Below, one piece after another: positions 15,427 through 21,722 of a DNA stretch of 64,000 bases (position 1 is its first letter; each line of letters starts with the position of its first letter). The notes under the pieces were generated by a model. That model did no database searches. It saw only the letters and a program-made list of their open reading frames with translations, and had not been told where the DNA came from. The stretch comes from Erwinia pyrifoliae DSM 12163. Its GTDB lineage: Bacteria > Pseudomonadota > Gammaproteobacteria > Enterobacterales > Enterobacteriaceae. The DNA lies in contig NC_017390.1 of NCBI RefSeq assembly GCF_000026985.1, positions 3,765,448-3,829,447 of the forward strand. Direction: 5' to 3'. A program made the position numbers and the translations under genes.

Positions 15427-15815
15427 TTAATATCCTGCGGTTAAATCATCAATGCTGCGCGGATCGGACGCACCATAACGCATACCGTCCGGTGCCAGCA
15501 TAATGCTCTGGCTGCTGCCCATCGTCGACATCACCTTCACATTCTGACCCTTTTCCGTCAGCAGTTTCAGCGTATCCGGGCTAAAGCCCTTTTCTACCCG
15601 CAGCTGGTCCGGCAGCCACTGGTGGTGGAAACGCGGCGCGTTGGTGGCTTCAGCTACGTTCATACCAAAGTCGATGCTGTTAACCACCAGCTGCAACACG
15701 GTGGTGATAATACGGCTCCCGCCAGGGCTGCCGGTCACCAGCCAGGTCTTGCCGTCTTTGACCACAATGGTCGGCGACATCGAGGAGAGCGGGCGTTTAT
15801 ACGGCTGTCGCCTCC
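15427..15815 (-). pseudogene. ggt: ggt 3' fragment (gamma-glutamyltransferase small-subunit end)
   Basis: The minus-strand frame encodes the C-terminal third of gamma-glutamyltransferase: KRPLSSMSPTIVVKDGK, TGSPGGSRIITTVLQ, NAPRFHHQWLPD, and ASDPRSIDDLTAGY at the end. Homology stops near 15815, at an insertion. The matching 5' part lies at 17674-19006. About a dozen codons at the junction (the GLVGGDANAV region) are lost or altered. The 136-residue frame has no signal peptide or catalytic Thr, so it cannot work alone. Confidence 0.93.
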
Positions 15816-15830
15816 ATGCGCCAGGCGCAT
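15816..15830. repeat. Palindrome at the left edge of the ggt insertion
   Basis: ATGCGCC-A-GGCGCAT is a perfect 7-1-7 inverted repeat exactly where ggt homology ends. It may mark the end of the inserted element. I see no matching copy at the right edge (about 17673). Confidence 0.4.
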
Positions 15831-15850
15831 AAAACACCTTACGGACTGTA

Positions 15851-15864
15851 TTTATAGCTATAAA
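15851..15864 (+). promoter_or_regulatory. Palindromic operator candidate of the antitoxin-like gene
   Basis: TTTATAGCTATAAA is a 14-base perfect palindrome 36 bp before the antitoxin start, and it contains a -10-like TATAAA. Ribbon-helix-helix antitoxins commonly repress their own promoter through such sites; the assignment is inference. Confidence 0.5.
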
Positions 15865-15900
15865 TTAGCGAAAATAAGAAAAAAAATGAGAGCGGTGTTT

Positions 15901-16128
15901 ATGATTGATACTGTGGTAAGCGCGAGGGTATCGCCAGCTTTAAAAGCTGCCGCGATGGTCAATGCGAAAGCGCCTGGCCTGGATTTATCGACCGTTATTC
16001 GTATGGTCGTGAACCGTTTAGCTGTAAATGCGGAGCTGCCAAAGGATTTGCTTCAGCCTAACCAGCAAACCTTAGAAGCTATCCGAAACTTAGAAAACGG
16101 TGTCGATATTTTCAAAGGAAACTTATAA
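15901..16128 (+). CDS. RelB/DinJ-like ribbon-helix-helix antitoxin
   Basis: A 75-residue protein (80 if translation starts at the upstream ATG at 15886). The N-terminal strand TVVSARVSPALKAAA and helix LDLSTVIRMVVNRLAV are typical of DinJ/RelB. The tail PNQQTLEAIRNLENGVD matches the DinJ segment that wraps the toxin, but the chain is slightly shorter than DinJ (86). No YafQ/RelE gene follows; instead an unrecognised gene starts 4 bp after the stop. It lies inside the ggt insertion. It could be a solitary antitoxin or the regulator of a new partner. Confidence 0.75.
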   Translation: MIDTVVSARVSPALKAAAMVNAKAPGLDLSTVIRMVVNRLAVNAELPKDLLQPNQQTLEAIRNLENGVDIFKGNL

Positions 16129-16132
16129 CCAC

Positions 16133-16738
16133 ATGATCAGTAATTCAGACCTTATTACCGGAATGCAAGCTGACAGTCTGTTAGCAGTGCGTCTTGAGAA
16201 GGCTATGGGCGGCGTGAAAGACGCAATGGTAGACCAGGCCAAACGCATACAGCTTGGTGCCACGCGCCTGGCTTACTACACATCCTGTTTTACCGACAAT
16301 TATCAGGATGTATGCACCGGGCAGAAAAACGAAGACGTACGTTTTCTGGAAGCACTCGTGCAGCTGATAAAACAGGGATACGTAGTCACCAGAATGTTAA
16401 GGATATACGTGGATCTGCTATTGCACGGACTTACGGCAGACCGCATAAGCCGCATTAAAACGCTGCTGATTGGTAAAGGTGCCAGAATTGCGTCAGGCTC
16501 GATGACAAACCAGGCGCAGGCGTATTCGGTCGTACTGGCTGCCAGCTACAGCTTCGGGACAAAGGTAGGAATAAATACAAAGCTGGCAAAAGTAAGCGCT
16601 GCAGCAGTAACCATCGTCAGCTACTACGGGTACGTCCAGGAAGCCGCTGAGGCTGCAAACAGACTTAAACAGCGGAATCAAACCTATTACTACGCGCTGT
16701 ACTCTGAAAAAACTGGAAATGCTCTATTTCATTATTGA
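16133..16738 (+). CDS. Unrecognised 201-residue protein, probably frameshifted near its end
   Basis: It starts at ATG 16133, with AAGGAAAC upstream, 4 bp after the antitoxin-like gene. I recognise no family. Visible features are a helical N-terminal half with Cys-containing YYTSCFTDNYQDVC, then an Ala/Gly/Val-rich stretch (AYSVVLAASYSFG, KVSAAAVTIVSYYGYV, residues about 125-170) that could insert in or bind membranes. There is no signal peptide. The frame ends soon after an A6 run (about 16707-16712). Reading one base on gives a further sensible chain (see 16719-16826), suggesting an original product of about 230 residues. Confidence 0.6.
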   Translation: MISNSDLITGMQADSLLAVRLEKAMGGVKDAMVDQAKRIQLGATRLAYYTSCFTDNYQDVCTGQKNEDVRFLEALVQLIKQGYVVTRMLRIYVDLLLHGLTADRISRIKTLLIGKGARIASGSMTNQAQAYSVVLAASYSFGTKVGINTKLAKVSAAAVTIVSYYGYVQEAAEAANRLKQRNQTYYYALYSEKTGNALFHY

Positions 16739-16826
16739 GCCAGTCATCAGAAGAAACGATCACCTGTTTTCCCTCCCCACATCAGACAACGACATTGCTG
16801 ACGCCATTGTGAGAATTATCAAATGA
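16719..16826 (+). CDS. Small frame, probably the displaced C-terminus of the preceding gene
   Basis: Frame +1 relative to 16133-16738 encodes EMLYFIIEPVIRRNDHLF and DNDIADAIVRIIK. Its stop overlaps the next gene's start as ATGA (16823-16826), the sort of coupling expected for a real gene end. It could be translated separately from ATG 16719 (35 residues, weak Shine-Dalgarno), but it reads best as the end of the 201-residue gene after loss of frame in the A6 run. Confidence 0.45.
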   Translation: MLYFIIEPVIRRNDHLFSLPTSDNDIADAIVRIIK

Positions 16827-17005
16827 GTGATTTCTTTAAAAAATGGTTGCGCAGCCAGCTGCGATACTTTGCCAGCACCCTGATCCCAGTACTGCTCATT
16901 ATCGGATTCGGGATGCTCGCGGTAACGTTCTGGCCATCTTTTGCATGGAGTTCGACAGCTGTCTTCGCGGCCGTAGTTATAGCCATTACCTTCTGGGTCA
17001 TTTAA
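16823..17005 (+). CDS. 60-residue two-helix membrane protein
   Basis: The basic amphipathic start MSDFFKKWLRSQLRYFAS is followed by two hydrophobic segments (LIPVLLIIGFGMLAVTFW, residues about 20-37; TAVFAAVVIAITFWVI, 45-60). The start overlaps the upstream stop. A clear paralogue sits at 21543-21722 on the other strand (FFK-W-QLRY-AS, LLII, FWP-AW-TA). I recognise no named family. Coupling to the unknown upstream gene, and a second stand-alone copy, would suit an immunity or accessory protein; this is inference. Confidence 0.65.
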   Translation: MSDFFKKWLRSQLRYFASTLIPVLLIIGFGMLAVTFWPSFAWSSTAVFAAVVIAITFWVI

Positions 17006-17169
17006 ACGGCTTTGGGGTTATTTGCCGTAACCCTGAATTTCTCCGCGACCAGTATTGTAAGGGCTGTCACTCAAACGACCGGTTGAGTGATAATCATGAA
17101 ATCGACGGTTTTGACGCTGAGATGTTTGACTGCTGCCCGCCTGAAGGACGGAGATTCCCACATAAATGA
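17002..17169 (+). other. Possible Cys-rich gene remnant
   Basis: A frame without a convincing start reads NGFGVICRNPEFLRDQYC, KGCHSNDRLSDNHEI and GFDAEMFDCCPPEGRRF before its stop. The composition (five Cys, acidic and polar residues) looks protein-like, and no other gene occupies the stretch. The longer frame from 16843 overlaps the membrane-protein gene and is not convincing. It may be the end of a decayed gene. Confidence 0.3.
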
Positions 17170-17217
17170 GCCGAACCTAAGTTGCGTGCTACGATTCAGG
17201 ATTACCGGGTGTCAGCT

Positions 17218-17355
17218 TCAGTTCGCGTTCCATATGTCCAGGAGCCGGTCTTTTATACTGGAAAGAACCGATGAATAAGGGAGTTTATCGAGCGCCTTTT
17301 CGAAACGGCGGCTCTGGTAAACATCGATATCACTTGCCAGTGGTCCTTCGAACAT
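17218..17355 (-). pseudogene. Truncated RelE/ParE-type toxin gene
   Basis: The minus-strand frame from ATG 17355 overlaps the end of the ParD-like gene and encodes 45 residues. DIDVYQSRRFEKALDKLP is the characteristic N-terminus of a RelE/StbE toxin family usually about 100 residues long. After that, similarity disappears and a stop follows, so the catalytic C-terminal half is missing. The pair is thus a toxin-antitoxin module with an inactivated toxin. Confidence 0.65.
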
Positions 17356-17560
17356 AACGCGTTACCTTATTTTTGCCGACTTCACTTTGAGCCAGCAAGG
17401 TTTCGCTGATAAAACTGTATGGCAGATCGGGATTATCTTCCGCAATCCTGCCAATTTTTGCCCAGTGCTCAATCTGCCTGGGAACACTGCGACTTTCAGC
17501 ATCAGCATGAATCCTTACATTCTCAACGAAATCATCGTCTAAGCGAATGCTAATGGCCAT
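17330..17560 (-). CDS. ParD-like antitoxin (PF11903-type)
   Basis: 76 residues. MAISIRLDDDFVENVRIHAD and SRSVPRQIEHWAKIGRIAED match the short ParD-like antitoxin family with a ribbon-helix-helix fold. A palindrome lies about 70 bp upstream as a likely autoregulatory operator. The overlapping downstream toxin gene is truncated, so this antitoxin is probably a leftover. It is transcribed opposite to the other genes of the insertion. Confidence 0.8.
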   Translation of the reverse strand: MAISIRLDDDFVENVRIHADAESRSVPRQIEHWAKIGRIAEDNPDLPYSFISETLLAQSEVGKNKVTRYVRRTTGK

Positions 17561-17626
17561 GATGTTATCTCCAGGGGTGGCTTTAATATATGCGATTGCA
17601 GCGCATAAACTGCGAACAGCGCCAGT

Positions 17627-17655
17627 GTATTGTGCGACATTATGTCGCGCAATAC
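17627..17655 (-). promoter_or_regulatory. Operator-like inverted repeat upstream of the ParD-like gene
   Basis: A 29-base inverted repeat: arms GTATTGTGCGACAT and ATGTCGCGCAATAC, one mismatch, one-base centre. It lies 67-95 bp upstream of the antitoxin start on the minus strand and about 18 bp inside the right edge of the insertion. It could be the toxin-antitoxin autoregulatory site, or an element end. Confidence 0.55.
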
Positions 17656-17673
17656 TGGACTGCCCCTATGCCA

Positions 17674-19006
17674 GTAGACGTTCGGCGTTCCCGGCTTGGC
17701 AGAGAAATCATCCATTTCGTTGTTCAGCAGAATACCGCTGTTACCAGCAACAATGCCGCTGCCGGAATTGGTGTTCAGCGTATAGGTCACCACACCGCGT
17801 TGCTGTCTTTATCCACCACCGAGAAATGCGTGGTCTGATCGCTTTCATACGGAGCCAGCGTACCCGGTTTGATCCCGGCGGAAGGGCGCGCTTTGGCCAC
17901 GTCGATTTGCTGTGCCAGCGATTTAGCATAAGCTTTGCTGGTCAGCGCCTGCATGGGAACCTTGACGAAATCCGGTCCACCGAGGTACTGCGAACGGTCG
18001 GCGTAGGCGTATTTTTCCGCCTCGGCCATTACCTGCATCGCATCGGCGCTACCAAAGCCCATTTTGGCCAGGTCAAAGTTTTCCAGGATATTGAGGATCT
18101 GCACAATATGCACGCCGCCAGAGGACGGCGGCGGCATGGAGAACACCTGATAACCGCGATAGGTTCCGCCGACCGGCTTACGCTCTATCGCCCGATAGTT
18201 CGCCAGATCGGATTTGGCGATCGGCCCGCCGAGCTGTTCCATTTCACCGGCGATCTCATCGGCAATTTTGCCTTTGTAGAAAGCGTCCGGCCCCTGGCGG
18301 GAAATCAGTTCCAGGCTGCGGGCCAGATTGCGCTGCACCAGCTTTTCGCCCTGACGATACGGCGTGCCGTCGGCCTTGAAGAAGATGGCTTTACTGTTGG
18401 CGTGATTCAACAGCACCTCTTTGCCATAGACCTTGAGATCGTCGGCCAGTGAATCATTAACCACTATACCGTTACGCGCCAGATCCAGCGCCGGTTTGAT
18501 CAGCTGGCTGAGCGGCAGCGTACCGTACTCTTTATTCGCCAGGGCAAACCCGGCCACGGTGCCGGGCACGCCGGAGGCCAGCGGTGACGTCAGTGATTTT
18601 TTGCTGTCGGCGTTACCCGCCGCATCCAGGAACATATTACGGCTGGCGCGTACCGGAGCCATCTCACGAAAATCTATTGAAGTGGTATGACCGGACGCGG
18701 TGCGCAGCAGCATAAAGCCGCCGCCCAGGTTACCGGCTTGGGGATGGGTCACGGCCAGCGCATAGCCAACGGCCACGGCGGCATCAACCGCGTTCCCGCC
18801 CTGCTGAAGAATTTTTACGCCAACGGCAGTGGCGGTGGCATCCACCGAGGCCACCATGCCGTGCTGCGCCCTGACCGGATGGAAGGTGTCCGTACCTGTG
18901 CCATAGGAAACCGGCGCGGCGGCAGGCGCTGCCAGCGCCCCTGGCTTACCAGCAGACTGATTTACAGCCCCCCTGAAAGGCGCTTTAATGAACTTTGTAT
19001 CGTCAT
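17674..19006 (-). pseudogene. ggt: ggt 5' part with several inactivating lesions
   Basis: Gamma-glutamyltransferase, normally a periplasmic autoprocessed enzyme that cleaves glutathione. The start is ATG 19006 after AAGGATAC. Lesions: (1) codon 15 (18962-18964) is TAA inside the signal peptide; (2) a one-base indel near 18930 separates the hydrophobic segment (ISLLVSQG) from the ALAAP cleavage region; (3) a one-base loss near 17787 (NAVW-stop against VVTYTLNTN); (4) homology stops after NVY at about 17674, at the insertion. The catalytic Thr motif QTTHFSVVD is still present. The 356-residue frame inside it lacks signal peptide and small subunit. Confidence 0.93.
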
Positions 19007-20227: not shown

Positions 20228-20481
20228 TATTCTATCCGTTGTTGGTTTTCATCAAAAAAGTGCAGCGATCGCGGCGGCAGATACAGCCACAGGTTGCTGC
20301 CCATCGGCGGGCGCAGCGAGTGCGGCAGGCGTACCACCAGCGGGATGCCGCCCAGCCGGCCGTGGACGAGGTTATCCGCCCCCAGCATTTCCAGCGTCTC
20401 TACCACCAGCCTGCCGCCGTCCTGCTTTGAGGGTAGTTCAATATGCTCCGGGCGGATCCCTTCAGTATAAGGGAGCGGATC
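20227..20481 (-). pseudogene. ugpC: ugpC remnant (C-terminal end only)
   Basis: About 80 codons encode the C-terminal regulatory domain of the glycerol-3-phosphate ABC transporter ATPase: [61 protein letters not shown]. The Walker A, signature and Walker B motifs are all missing. It abuts the end of the ugpB remnant, so one deletion removed the rest of ugpB, ugpA, ugpE and most of ugpC. Confidence 0.9.
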
Positions 20482-20795
20482 TTAGTTTAACATCTGGCGG
20501 GTGGCAATATCCGCGCCCGGATGCTGCTGACAGAACCCCTGCCGTTTGGCCAGATCGTAAGCGGCGGTGATGATCGGCAGATAGCCGGTTTTCTGGTGCC
20601 ATTCGGCTGCCCTATCCGGCTGGGCGAGGAACTGCATAAACTCGGCGACGCCTTTACAGGTGGGGACGATGCGGTAGTCAGGGTGCGTTTCATTAAAGCG
20701 GGTCGCCAGCGCATTTACCTCTACCCCCAGTTCACCCTCCATTGAGTGCCAGAAAGGAATGTCGGTGGCGGCCAGCGCACTGGTACTGAAAGGCC
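20482..20795 (-). pseudogene. ugpB: ugpB remnant with internal and 3' deletions
   Basis: The frame holds the mature N-terminus of the glycerol-3-phosphate binding protein ([35 protein letters not shown]). It is joined directly to a segment near the C-terminus ([46 protein letters not shown]), so roughly 270 residues are gone. A stop after MLN meets ugpC sequence. Upstream, a signal-peptide-like [12 protein letters not shown] sits in a different frame, a further frameshift. Confidence 0.9.
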
Positions 20796-21242
20796 AGTCC
20801 AGGTATCAGGCTAAGTGCATGGTGACGGAATGATAAAGATGGATTGTCGGTTTCCTGTACCCGCTGTTCTAAGGCGCGAAGACGCACATTGCTGTCATTT
20901 GCAGGTAACATGACACGGGGAAATGAAAGAAACATAACGTTTGTATGAACGGGGGGTGACGGTGAGTCCTGACCTGGCTCAGTATTTTCGCCCGATGGTT
21001 AGAACTTCGTAGAGCAACGAGCGCCTCTCTTTACAAAGCTCGTAGCCCTTTTGTTCCCTGCTAAAAGAGACGACAGGAGATACGCTGAAAGCGGCGCGTT
21101 GCAGACACAAAAAAACCGCCCTGGAAGGCGGTTCTTTTGTGCGGCGATAAGGCCTGGAAACTTCAGCCGCGTACCATATAGACTGGTAACTTGACTCGGG
21201 TATTTTAGCCGAATAACGTGTTAAACAGCTGCTTTTTTTGAA
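20796..21242. other. Region upstream of the ugpB remnant
   Basis: No gene I can support. Near the ugp side is a TGTCAT-N11-ATGACA dyad (20893-20915), possibly the relic of a PhoB-type ugp control site, though the spacing does not fit a canonical Pho box. A minus-strand frame at 20979-21257 crosses a strong terminator and is doubtful as a whole. Its last part (EQKGYELCKERRSLLYEVL, then TIGRKY) looks protein-like and may be the end of a decayed gene. Confidence 0.4.
21108..21134 (-). terminator. Strong terminator hairpin in the small island
   Basis: On the minus strand AACCGCC-TTCCAG-GGCGGTT is followed by TTTTT. On the plus strand the same stem is followed by CTTTT, so it could work in both directions. 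No intact gene ends right before it, so it may end an unannotated RNA (see findings). Confidence 0.8.
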
Positions 21243-21250
21243 TAGAAAAT

Positions 21251-21439
21251 CTAACAATTCTGCGAAGTCAGGCCAGTGATAACAGCCTTAATCAAAACAA
21301 CAAGTTCTTCCTCGGCTATTTCGTTAATCTCCTTTCCAGGATACAAAGCTGGGAGCATGCCTTTAGCGAAGCTCTCCAATTCCATGTTATAACCAAGAAC
21401 CAAAGCGTCCTGGTAAAGGTCAATTAGCTGATTTTTCAT
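21251..21439 (-). CDS. Small acidic protein of unknown function
   Basis: 62 residues, beginning MKNQLIDLYQDALVLGYN, with an acidic helical middle (GKEINEIAEEELVVLIKAV). AAGGAT lies seven bases before the ATG, which supports translation. I recognise no family. It follows the membrane-protein gene at 21543-21722 on the same strand after about 100 bp, in the same small non-conserved island between ugpB and livF. Confidence 0.5.
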   Translation of the reverse strand: MKNQLIDLYQDALVLGYNMELESFAKGMLPALYPGKEINEIAEEELVVLIKAVITGLTSQNC

Positions 21440-21542: not shown

Positions 21543-21722
21543 CTATTTCCAGCGAGAAACAACCCATATGATTACCAGCGTAAAGAGTGCCGTAGTGCCC
21601 CATGCATAGTCGGGCCAGAACATACCGCCTGACGCAGCGAAAGCAATAATAAGCAGGGCACAAATGACAATGCTGGCAAGGTATCGTAGCTGCCAAGCCA
21701 GCCATCTTTTAAAAAAATTCAT
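21543..21722 (-). CDS. 59-residue two-helix membrane protein, paralogue of 16823-17005
   Basis: Start MNFFKRWLAWQLRYLASIVI at 21722, then two hydrophobic segments (ICALLIIAFAASGGMFW and TTALFTLVIIWVV) with a conserved FWPDYAWG link, ending SRWK. Aligned with the 60-residue protein in the ggt insertion it shares FFK-WL--QLRY-ASI/T, ALLII-F, FWP--AW-TA. No unknown large gene precedes it here. Longer overlapping frames on this strand are out of phase. Confidence 0.6.
   Translation of the reverse strand: MNFFKRWLAWQLRYLASIVICALLIIAFAASGGMFWPDYAWGTTALFTLVIIWVVSRWK

What the first reader, a model, noticed from the sequence alone, without database searches (positions are those of the whole stretch)
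15816..17673. Candidate undescribed gene module inserted in ggt: DinJ-like antitoxin, unknown protein, small membrane protein
Three same-strand genes are packed with a 4-bp gap and an ATGA overlap: a RelB/DinJ-type antitoxin without a RelE/YafQ partner, a 201-residue protein of no family I know with an Ala/Gly/Val-rich potentially membrane-active stretch, and a 60-residue two-helix membrane protein. The layout suits an antitoxin/toxin/immunity or membrane-acting toxin system. Function is inference; the packing, the antitoxin family and the insertion into ggt are seen directly.
Basis: partly seen in the sequence, partly recalled or inferred. Interest (0 to 1): 0.8.

Follow-up and report, generated by a model that had tools for sequence, protein, structure and literature searches.

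The report
Decayed Ssp6-like effector and immunity pair
The three packed genes are not a new toxin-antitoxin system but, most likely, a broken copy of a known kind of bacterial weapon gene with its protective partner gene, sitting by chance behind a cut-off antitoxin gene, so the find is mostly ordinary.

Summary
The genes are real but are not one three-gene system. The '201-residue protein' is most of a ~230-residue protein whose conserved tail lies in another frame; its family occurs in 115 of 392 genomes searched. The 60-residue membrane protein is its usual partner: 104 of 114 intact non-redundant loci have such a gene directly downstream, and 44 of 106 have a T6SS Hcp gene next. This is the anatomy of the pore-forming T6SS effector Ssp6 and its immunity protein Sip6 (PMC6889166); Ssp6's own sequence could not be compared. 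The antitoxin is a stray: 16 of 22 loci with its relatives carry a toxin-sized ORF next, but this copy has lost its C-terminus and toxin, and only 1 of 114 effector loci has a RelB-like gene upstream, the one sharing this insertion. A same-genus genome (G406) carries the module with an intact effector beside an intact ggt whose 3' end is duplicated. Verdict: new, decayed member of a known kind. Side lead: long direct repeats of host DNA bracket 8 of 99 clusters of such islets (two of the 8 prompted the search) against 0 of 70 control regions.

The parts
15427..15807 (-). 3' part of ggt, left of the insert
   Evidence: Aligned with intact ggt of same-genus relatives; in G406 this stretch is present twice
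15850..15865 (.). degenerate remnant of the dinJ-type operator (perfect 16-base palindrome here)
   Evidence: 9 of 10 dinJ-yafQ relatives printed carry TGTAGCTACA/TGTGGCTACA-like boxes upstream (read by eye); here and in G406 the box has decayed; no promoter-like site was found in 15780-17700
15886..16128 (+). truncated RelB/DinJ-like antitoxin (80 aa; alternative start 15901), lacking the conserved C-terminus and the toxin gene
   Evidence: PF04221 2.3e-9, TIGR02384 positions 2-67 of 85; relatives and their toxins
16107..16132 (.). junction between dinJ-derived and effector-locus DNA
   Evidence: blastn: homology to L094 ends at about 16106 (the other 4 dinJ loci tried gave no DNA match); homology to L078/L014/L003 begins at 16128-16133 (in L015/L089/L154 it begins later, 16233-16262)
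16133..16738 (+). Ssp6-like effector gene, main part (201-aa ORF), frame broken near its 3' end
   Evidence: phrog_26461 1e-23; family alignment A1; intact 230-aa orthologue in G406
16704..16826 (+). C-terminal tail of the same gene in another frame; its stop overlaps the next start by 4 nt
16823..17005 (+). Sip6-like immunity gene, 60 aa, two predicted transmembrane helices
   Evidence: protein identical in G406 with 2 synonymous changes
17218..17355 (-). RelE/ParE-type toxin stub (45 aa)
   Evidence: 52% identity over 33 residues to a 113-aa toxin of a Pantoea dispersa plasmid; no hit in the plasmid collection on its own
17330..17560 (-). ParD-like antitoxin (76 aa)
   Evidence: PF11903 3.7e-22, phrog_16013 1.2e-39
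17670..18857 (-). 5' part of ggt, right of the insert; frame also disturbed near 17.79 kb
21543..21722 (-). solitary Sip6-like immunity gene (59 aa) downstream of livF, without its effector
   Evidence: 53% identity over 51 residues to the 60-aa protein; in G399 the homologous site still has an effector-like ORF beside it

Best explanation
[quoted passage not shown] In intact relatives the ~230-residue protein would be carried by the T6SS Hcp tube, injected into a neighbouring bacterium, and form ion-selective pores that depolarise its inner membrane. The small two-helix membrane protein would bind and neutralise it in kin cells. In this genome the effector frame is broken near its end, so it probably no longer arms the cell; the immunity gene is intact and may still protect. 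The RelB-like gene lies in front only because a recombination junction cut a dinJ-yafQ locus inside the antitoxin and joined it just before the effector start. Shown: homology, gene order, junction, frame break, an unchanged immunity protein in G406, presence of T6SS genes (TssC, Hcp) in this genome. Inferred: identity with the Ssp6 family, Hcp delivery, pore formation, surviving immunity.
For: Family in 115 of 392 genomes. Downstream two-helix ORF in 104 of 114 intact non-redundant loci, a 4-nt overlap in 46 of 114, and Hcp within 900 bp downstream in 44 of 106 with enough flank. Ssp6/Sip6 has the same layout: immunity ORF of 204 bp, 4-nt overlap, two predicted helices, homologues across Enterobacteriaceae, some beside orphan hcp as in some Klebsiella pneumoniae (PMC6889166). 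Our K. pneumoniae relative L006 has effector, small ORF and hcp in a row; in K. pneumoniae L186 the effector is split into two ORFs and hcp follows. Own genome has TssC and Hcp. AlphaFold predicts an all-helical protein, though at low confidence; the paper reports a predicted alpha-helical toxin. dinJ junction. Intact orthologue and identical immunity protein in G406.
Against: No sequence of Ssp6 itself could be fetched: no Serratia locus is among the 55 genome-contig loci (a scan with one peptide pattern), so membership rests on anatomy and on the paper's Klebsiella example. No Hcp gene lies by the window copy or its three closest plasmid relatives, and 62 of 106 family loci have none within 900 bp. 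The model has low confidence (mean pLDDT 54). There is no profile match in Pfam or NCBIfam above cut-off. The frame break could be an assembly error.
Confidence: 0.83

Rival explanations
1. A genuine three-gene toxin-antitoxin system: the RelB-like protein neutralises the 201-residue toxin in the cytoplasm and the membrane protein gives immunity.
For: Packing with a 4-bp gap; the arrangement is kept in two species, with an intact effector in G406.
Against: RelB-like upstream in 1 of 114 loci, sharing the same insertion (the profile used finds close DinJ relatives only); antitoxin C-terminus and YafQ toxin missing; operator decayed and no promoter-like site; antitoxin shows 3 nonsynonymous to 3 synonymous changes against G406, the immunity protein 0 to 2 (small numbers).
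Confidence: 0.03
2. A plasmid-borne bacteriocin-like pore former released or acting without a T6SS; the small membrane protein is its immunity.
For: The three closest plasmid relatives lie on conjugative plasmids without an adjacent hcp; a member lies on a 4.4-kb mobilizable plasmid.
Against: Hcp adjacent in 44 of 106 family loci; the protein is only about 230 residues, which leaves little room for receptor-binding or translocation regions; Ssp6 itself is secreted by a T6SS without linked T6SS genes.
Confidence: 0.07
3. A T6SS effector-immunity pair whose effector attacks the membrane in a way other than ion-selective pores, only loosely related to Ssp6.
For: No direct comparison with Ssp6 was possible; no hydrophobic segment by hydropathy; low-confidence model.
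Against: Helix content, two-helix immunity protein, 4-nt overlap, host range and hcp linkage agree with the published family. The other Serratia pore family, Ssp4, differs: a modelled region running to residue 331 and a four-helix immunity protein.
Confidence: 0.07

Closest known systems
Ssp6/Sip6 effector-immunity family of Serratia marcescens (PMC6889166)
   Same: Small effector without recognised domains, immediately followed (often with a 4-nt overlap) by a two-helix membrane protein; widespread in Enterobacteriaceae; variable locations, some beside orphan hcp; several copies in some genomes
   Different: The window copy is frame-broken, has no hcp beside it and lies behind a cut dinJ; no direct sequence comparison with Ssp6 was possible
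DinJ/YafQ type II toxin-antitoxin
   Same: The upstream gene is a RelB/DinJ-family antitoxin; its closest relative (L094, 81% over the match) is followed by a YafQ_toxin protein (PF15738, 1.1e-28)
   Different: C-terminus and toxin lost, operator decayed
ParD_like/RelE toxin-antitoxin
   Same: PF11903 antitoxin overlapping a RelE/ParE-type reading frame, as in a Pantoea dispersa plasmid
   Different: Toxin reduced to a 45-residue stub
Ssp4/Sip4 pore-forming T6SS effector (PMC12669606)
   Same: T6SS pore former with downstream membrane immunity gene, found in a three-gene insertion within a housekeeping cluster (ilv)
   Different: Modelled region runs to residue 331; immunity protein has four predicted helices; described as distinct from Ssp6

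Membership tests
Ssp6/Sip6 effector-immunity family | sequence similarity to Ssp6 (authors' HMM, bit score 20 or more) | not testable with these tools
   Model and sequence not held; no Serratia locus among 55 named loci
Ssp6/Sip6 effector-immunity family | small downstream ORF with two transmembrane helices, overlapping the effector gene by 4 nt | tested here: met
   Window: overlap with the tail frame, two hydrophobic segments; family: 104 of 114 have the ORF and 46 of 114 the 4-nt overlap
Ssp6/Sip6 effector-immunity family | spread in Enterobacteriaceae, some members beside orphan hcp | tested here: met
   115 of 392 genomes; hcp in 44 of 106 loci; K. pneumoniae examples
Ssp6/Sip6 effector-immunity family | host encodes a T6SS | tested here: met
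   TssC/VipB 2.5e-137, Hcp 1.2e-36; the whole cluster was not checked
Ssp6/Sip6 effector-immunity family | intact effector reading frame | tested here: not met
   Window ORF ends early with its conserved tail in another frame; an intact copy exists in G406
Ssp6/Sip6 effector-immunity family | T6SS-dependent secretion, depolarisation, pore formation, neutralisation by the partner | not testable with these tools
   Needs bench work
RelB/DinJ type II antitoxin | RelB-family DNA-binding domain | tested here: met
   PF04221 37.5 bits, cut-off 22.4
RelB/DinJ type II antitoxin | full-length antitoxin with toxin-binding C-terminus | tested here: not met
   Match ends at profile position 67 of 85, below the TIGR02384 cut-off; the C-terminus shared by 15 of 16 relatives, ending in LxxxLxW (motif read by eye), is absent. 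That it binds the toxin is recalled, not tested
RelB/DinJ type II antitoxin | adjacent RelE/YafQ toxin | tested here: not met
   Next gene is the Ssp6-like ORF; a toxin-size ORF follows in 16 of 22 relative loci (counted by eye; one of them tested as YafQ)
New antitoxin/toxin/immunity three-gene system | conserved order RelB-like, unknown, membrane protein in independent loci | tested here: not met
   RelB-like upstream in 1 of 114 loci, the one with the same insertion

The most novel reading that the evidence does not exclude
Ssp6-Sip6(-Hcp) islets may move without an integrase, as DNA carrying a piece of a host housekeeping gene that recombines at that gene and leaves the islet between two copies of it. 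Seen: a 417-bp duplicated 3' end of ggt in G406, a 226-bp duplicated 3' end of livF in G399, a 244-bp duplicated 3' end of a tautomerase gene in K. pneumoniae, a 279-bp duplicated gene end in Xenorhabdus, and others: 8 of 99 clusters of family loci against 0 of 70 control regions. The ggt and livF cases prompted the search; without them it is 6 of 97. In the window's lineage the restoring copy of the ggt end would then have been lost, which is why ggt now looks interrupted.
Probability: 0.2. Interest if true: 0.55.

Novelty: new member of a known kind. Interest (0 to 1): 0.3.

Why it matters
It removes a false lead for a new three-component toxin-antitoxin system and replaces it with a likely case of T6SS effector decay: a broken effector, an immunity protein unchanged between two species, and a second, solitary immunity gene 4.5 kb away. 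The long host-gene duplications around several such islets suggest a testable way in which small effector-immunity islets enter genomes without an integrase.

Tried and rejected
Profile libraries: no Pfam or NCBIfam match above cut-off and no PADLOC match for the effector or membrane ORFs; weak Pfam hits (AFF4_CHD 0.026 and others) are below cut-off and were ignored. PDB sequence search: 0 hits. Phage records: 0 hits for the window protein and for a viral-contig relative, although PHROGs has a family. The AlphaFold model of the 201-residue ORF on 56 rows gave mean pLDDT 54 and pTM 0.39; no fold search was run because such a model gives meaningless matches. The attempt to reach Serratia Ssp6 through genome contigs failed. 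A Klebsiella T6SS survey (PMC12469244, passages only) does not mention Ssp6. Considered and rejected: an operon autoregulated by the truncated antitoxin (operator decayed, no promoter-like site); the Ssp4 family; a programmed frameshift, because the 10 relatives in the first alignment and G406 read through in one frame. A count of synonymous/nonsynonymous changes was made only against G406: 3/3 in the antitoxin, 7/3 in the main effector part, 0/0 in the tail, 2/0 in the immunity gene; too small for a test. The survey began from 146 loci: 23 broken or short ones and, by subtraction, 9 with identical effector C-termini were dropped, leaving 114. It has no random control for the rate of small two-helix ORFs, and its RelB profile finds close DinJ relatives only. 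Of 17 plasmid records with a hit I opened 11. The direct-repeat finding was looked for after two cases had been seen (L139, L207; L207 was added to the set by hand), with thresholds (100 bp, 85%) chosen afterwards; control stretches differ in length from the loci and the window tiles overlap one another. L164, which also passes the thresholds, was set aside because its repeats include a tandem copy of the effector module itself; shorter or weaker repeats in L033, L036, L037, L041-L043, L060, L061, L068 and L163 were not counted.
Full report
What is in the sequence. Between the two halves of ggt (3' part ending at 15807, 5' part beginning at 17670; 27 bp of ggt are missing against intact relatives) lie, on the + strand, an 80-codon RelB-like ORF (15886-16128), a 4-bp gap, a 201-codon ORF (16133-16738) and a 60-codon ORF (16823-17005). 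On the - strand lie a ParD-like antitoxin (17330-17560) and a 45-codon stub (17218-17355). The 201-codon ORF ends 84 bp before the 60-codon one. So the middle gene is a ~230-codon gene whose frame is broken near its end. The 10 relatives of the first alignment and a same-genus orthologue (G406, L139) read through in one frame. Some other family loci are broken too: 23 of 146 gave no ORF of survey length, among them two of the plasmid relatives (L009, L011).

What the middle gene is. It has no Pfam or NCBIfam match above cut-off but matches phrog_26461 (1e-23). tblastn finds 17 plasmid records, 11 of them Pantoea, the best at 65% identity. A profile of the family finds it in 115 of 392 genomes of the bacterial family, in 49 viral-contig loci and in 55 named genome loci. 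I opened 11 of the 17 plasmid records; in 6 of the 9 with an intact effector ORF, tssD/hcp follows. In a survey of 114 intact, non-redundant loci, a 45-110-residue ORF with two hydrophobic segments starts within -30 to +60 bp of its stop in 104. Five of the 10 misses lie at the very end of the stretch held. 46 of 114 show the 4-nt overlap. Hcp follows within 900 bp in 44 of 106 loci with enough flank. The survey includes the own-genome paralogue (L088), which is one of the misses.

What it works like. This is the anatomy of Ssp6/Sip6 of Serratia marcescens (PMC6889166; I read the abstract, sections 6 and 26, part 1 of section 12, and passages). Ssp6 is a small T6SS effector forming cation-selective pores. 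Sip6 is an immunity protein with two predicted helices, encoded by a 204-bp ORF overlapping ssp6 by 4 nt. Homologues occur in 38 species of the authors' set, some beside orphan hcp, as in some K. pneumoniae. Our K. pneumoniae relative L006 shows effector, small ORF and hcp in a row; in L186 the effector is split into two ORFs and hcp follows. The genome of the window has T6SS genes: TssC and Hcp. Ssp4/Sip4, the other Serratia pore family (PMC12669606, passages read), does not fit in size or number of immunity helices. I could not compare with Ssp6 itself, so membership is inferred. The AlphaFold model is all-helical but too weak to search with.

Why the antitoxin does not belong. Of 22 loci holding relatives of the RelB-like protein, 16 have a toxin-sized ORF immediately downstream (counted by eye); of the other 6, one ends at a contig edge (L097), one has an altered reading (L098) and in 4 none was listed. 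The one toxin tested is a YafQ toxin (PF15738, 1.1e-28). Fifteen of 16 antitoxins used for a profile are 85 residues long after trimming and end in the same C-terminal motif. The window's copy stops matching at profile position 67 of 85. By blastn its dinJ homology ends at about 16106 (against L094; the 4 other dinJ loci tried gave no DNA match), while homology to the three closest Ssp6-like loci begins at 16128-16133. Within 600 bp upstream of the effector, a RelB-like ORF occurs in 1 of 114 loci, namely G406, which shares this insertion. The operator boxes seen in 9 of 10 dinJ-yafQ relatives are decayed here (by eye), and no promoter-like site was found where shuffles give a mean of 2.5. The 4-bp gap is therefore best read as a recombination junction, not an operon design.

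History. Of 11 relatives' ggt loci compared, only G406 (L125) has the module; in all 11 ggt itself is uninterrupted at that place. In G406 the module lies between a 3' fragment of ggt and a complete ggt, so the 3' end is present twice (417-bp repeat, 95.9% identical). The coding part of the two copies is 98.9% identical, and the window's copy is 96% identical to each. Effector and immunity DNA are 98-99% identical between the two species, against about 90-92% in the flanking genome, so the block has probably been exchanged between them; which of the two arrangements came first is not settled. At livF, G399 has a second such islet: an effector-like ORF that also ends early, an immunity-like ORF and a DUF2971 gene, with 226 bp of the livF 3' end duplicated. 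The window keeps only a solitary immunity gene there (21543-21722).

Long direct repeats. Because of these two cases I asked whether direct repeats (100 bp or more, 85% or more) span other family loci. They do in 9 loci (8 clusters at 90% DNA identity) of 127 loci (99 clusters) with 1.2 kb on both sides, L164 being set aside, and in 0 of 25 window tiles, 0 of 26 dinJ loci and 0 of 19 housekeeping loci. Without the two prompting loci it is 6 of 97 clusters. In K. pneumoniae the repeat is the 3' end of a tautomerase gene, in Xenorhabdus L177 the 3' end of another gene. Not all are 3' ends: in the own-genome paralogue it is 246 bp at 99% at the start of a gene that I take, from recall, for kdpA; in L084 it holds a whole small gene, and in L151 it overlaps the start of a LysR-like gene (gene names read by eye). 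The thresholds were set after the first cases were seen, flank lengths differ, and the one search for prior reports (listing only) was not exhaustive. I treat this as a lead.

Verdict. Interest 0.3.

Noticed in passing
window 21543-21722 (-): A solitary Sip6-like immunity gene downstream of livF without an effector; in the relative G399 the same site holds an effector-like ORF and a duplicated livF 3' end (L207).
   Followed up: partly
L002 and L088 (own genome, C3 about 3.8935 Mb): An intact paralogue (230 aa) without a downstream two-helix ORF; instead two small hydrophobic ORFs (82 and 65 aa, overlapping by ATGA) are encoded divergently upstream, and 246-bp repeats (99% identical) flank the region. 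Erwinia mallotivora L154 has a similar pair beside a broken copy.
   Followed up: partly
L006 3569-3810 and 5391-5634; L186; L177; L084; L151; L076: Direct repeats of 123-382 bp, several being duplicated ends of neighbouring genes, bracket effector-immunity(-hcp) islets in other loci.
   Followed up: partly
window 17218-17560 (-): ParD-like antitoxin with a toxin reduced to a 45-residue stub; a similar short reading is present in G406 (L139).
   Followed up: partly
window 20453-21077 (-): The region beyond the glycerophosphodiesterase-like ORF looks like remnants of a ugp-type operon (names from recall); relatives G399, G405 and G406 have several kb more here.
   Followed up: no
L163 and L164 (Photorhabdus): Repeated effector-immunity pieces, in L164 two tandem effector-immunity modules: a possible site of local duplication and divergence.
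   Followed up: no
window 21251-21439 (-): A 62-codon ORF beside the solitary immunity gene has no family match above cut-off.
   Followed up: no
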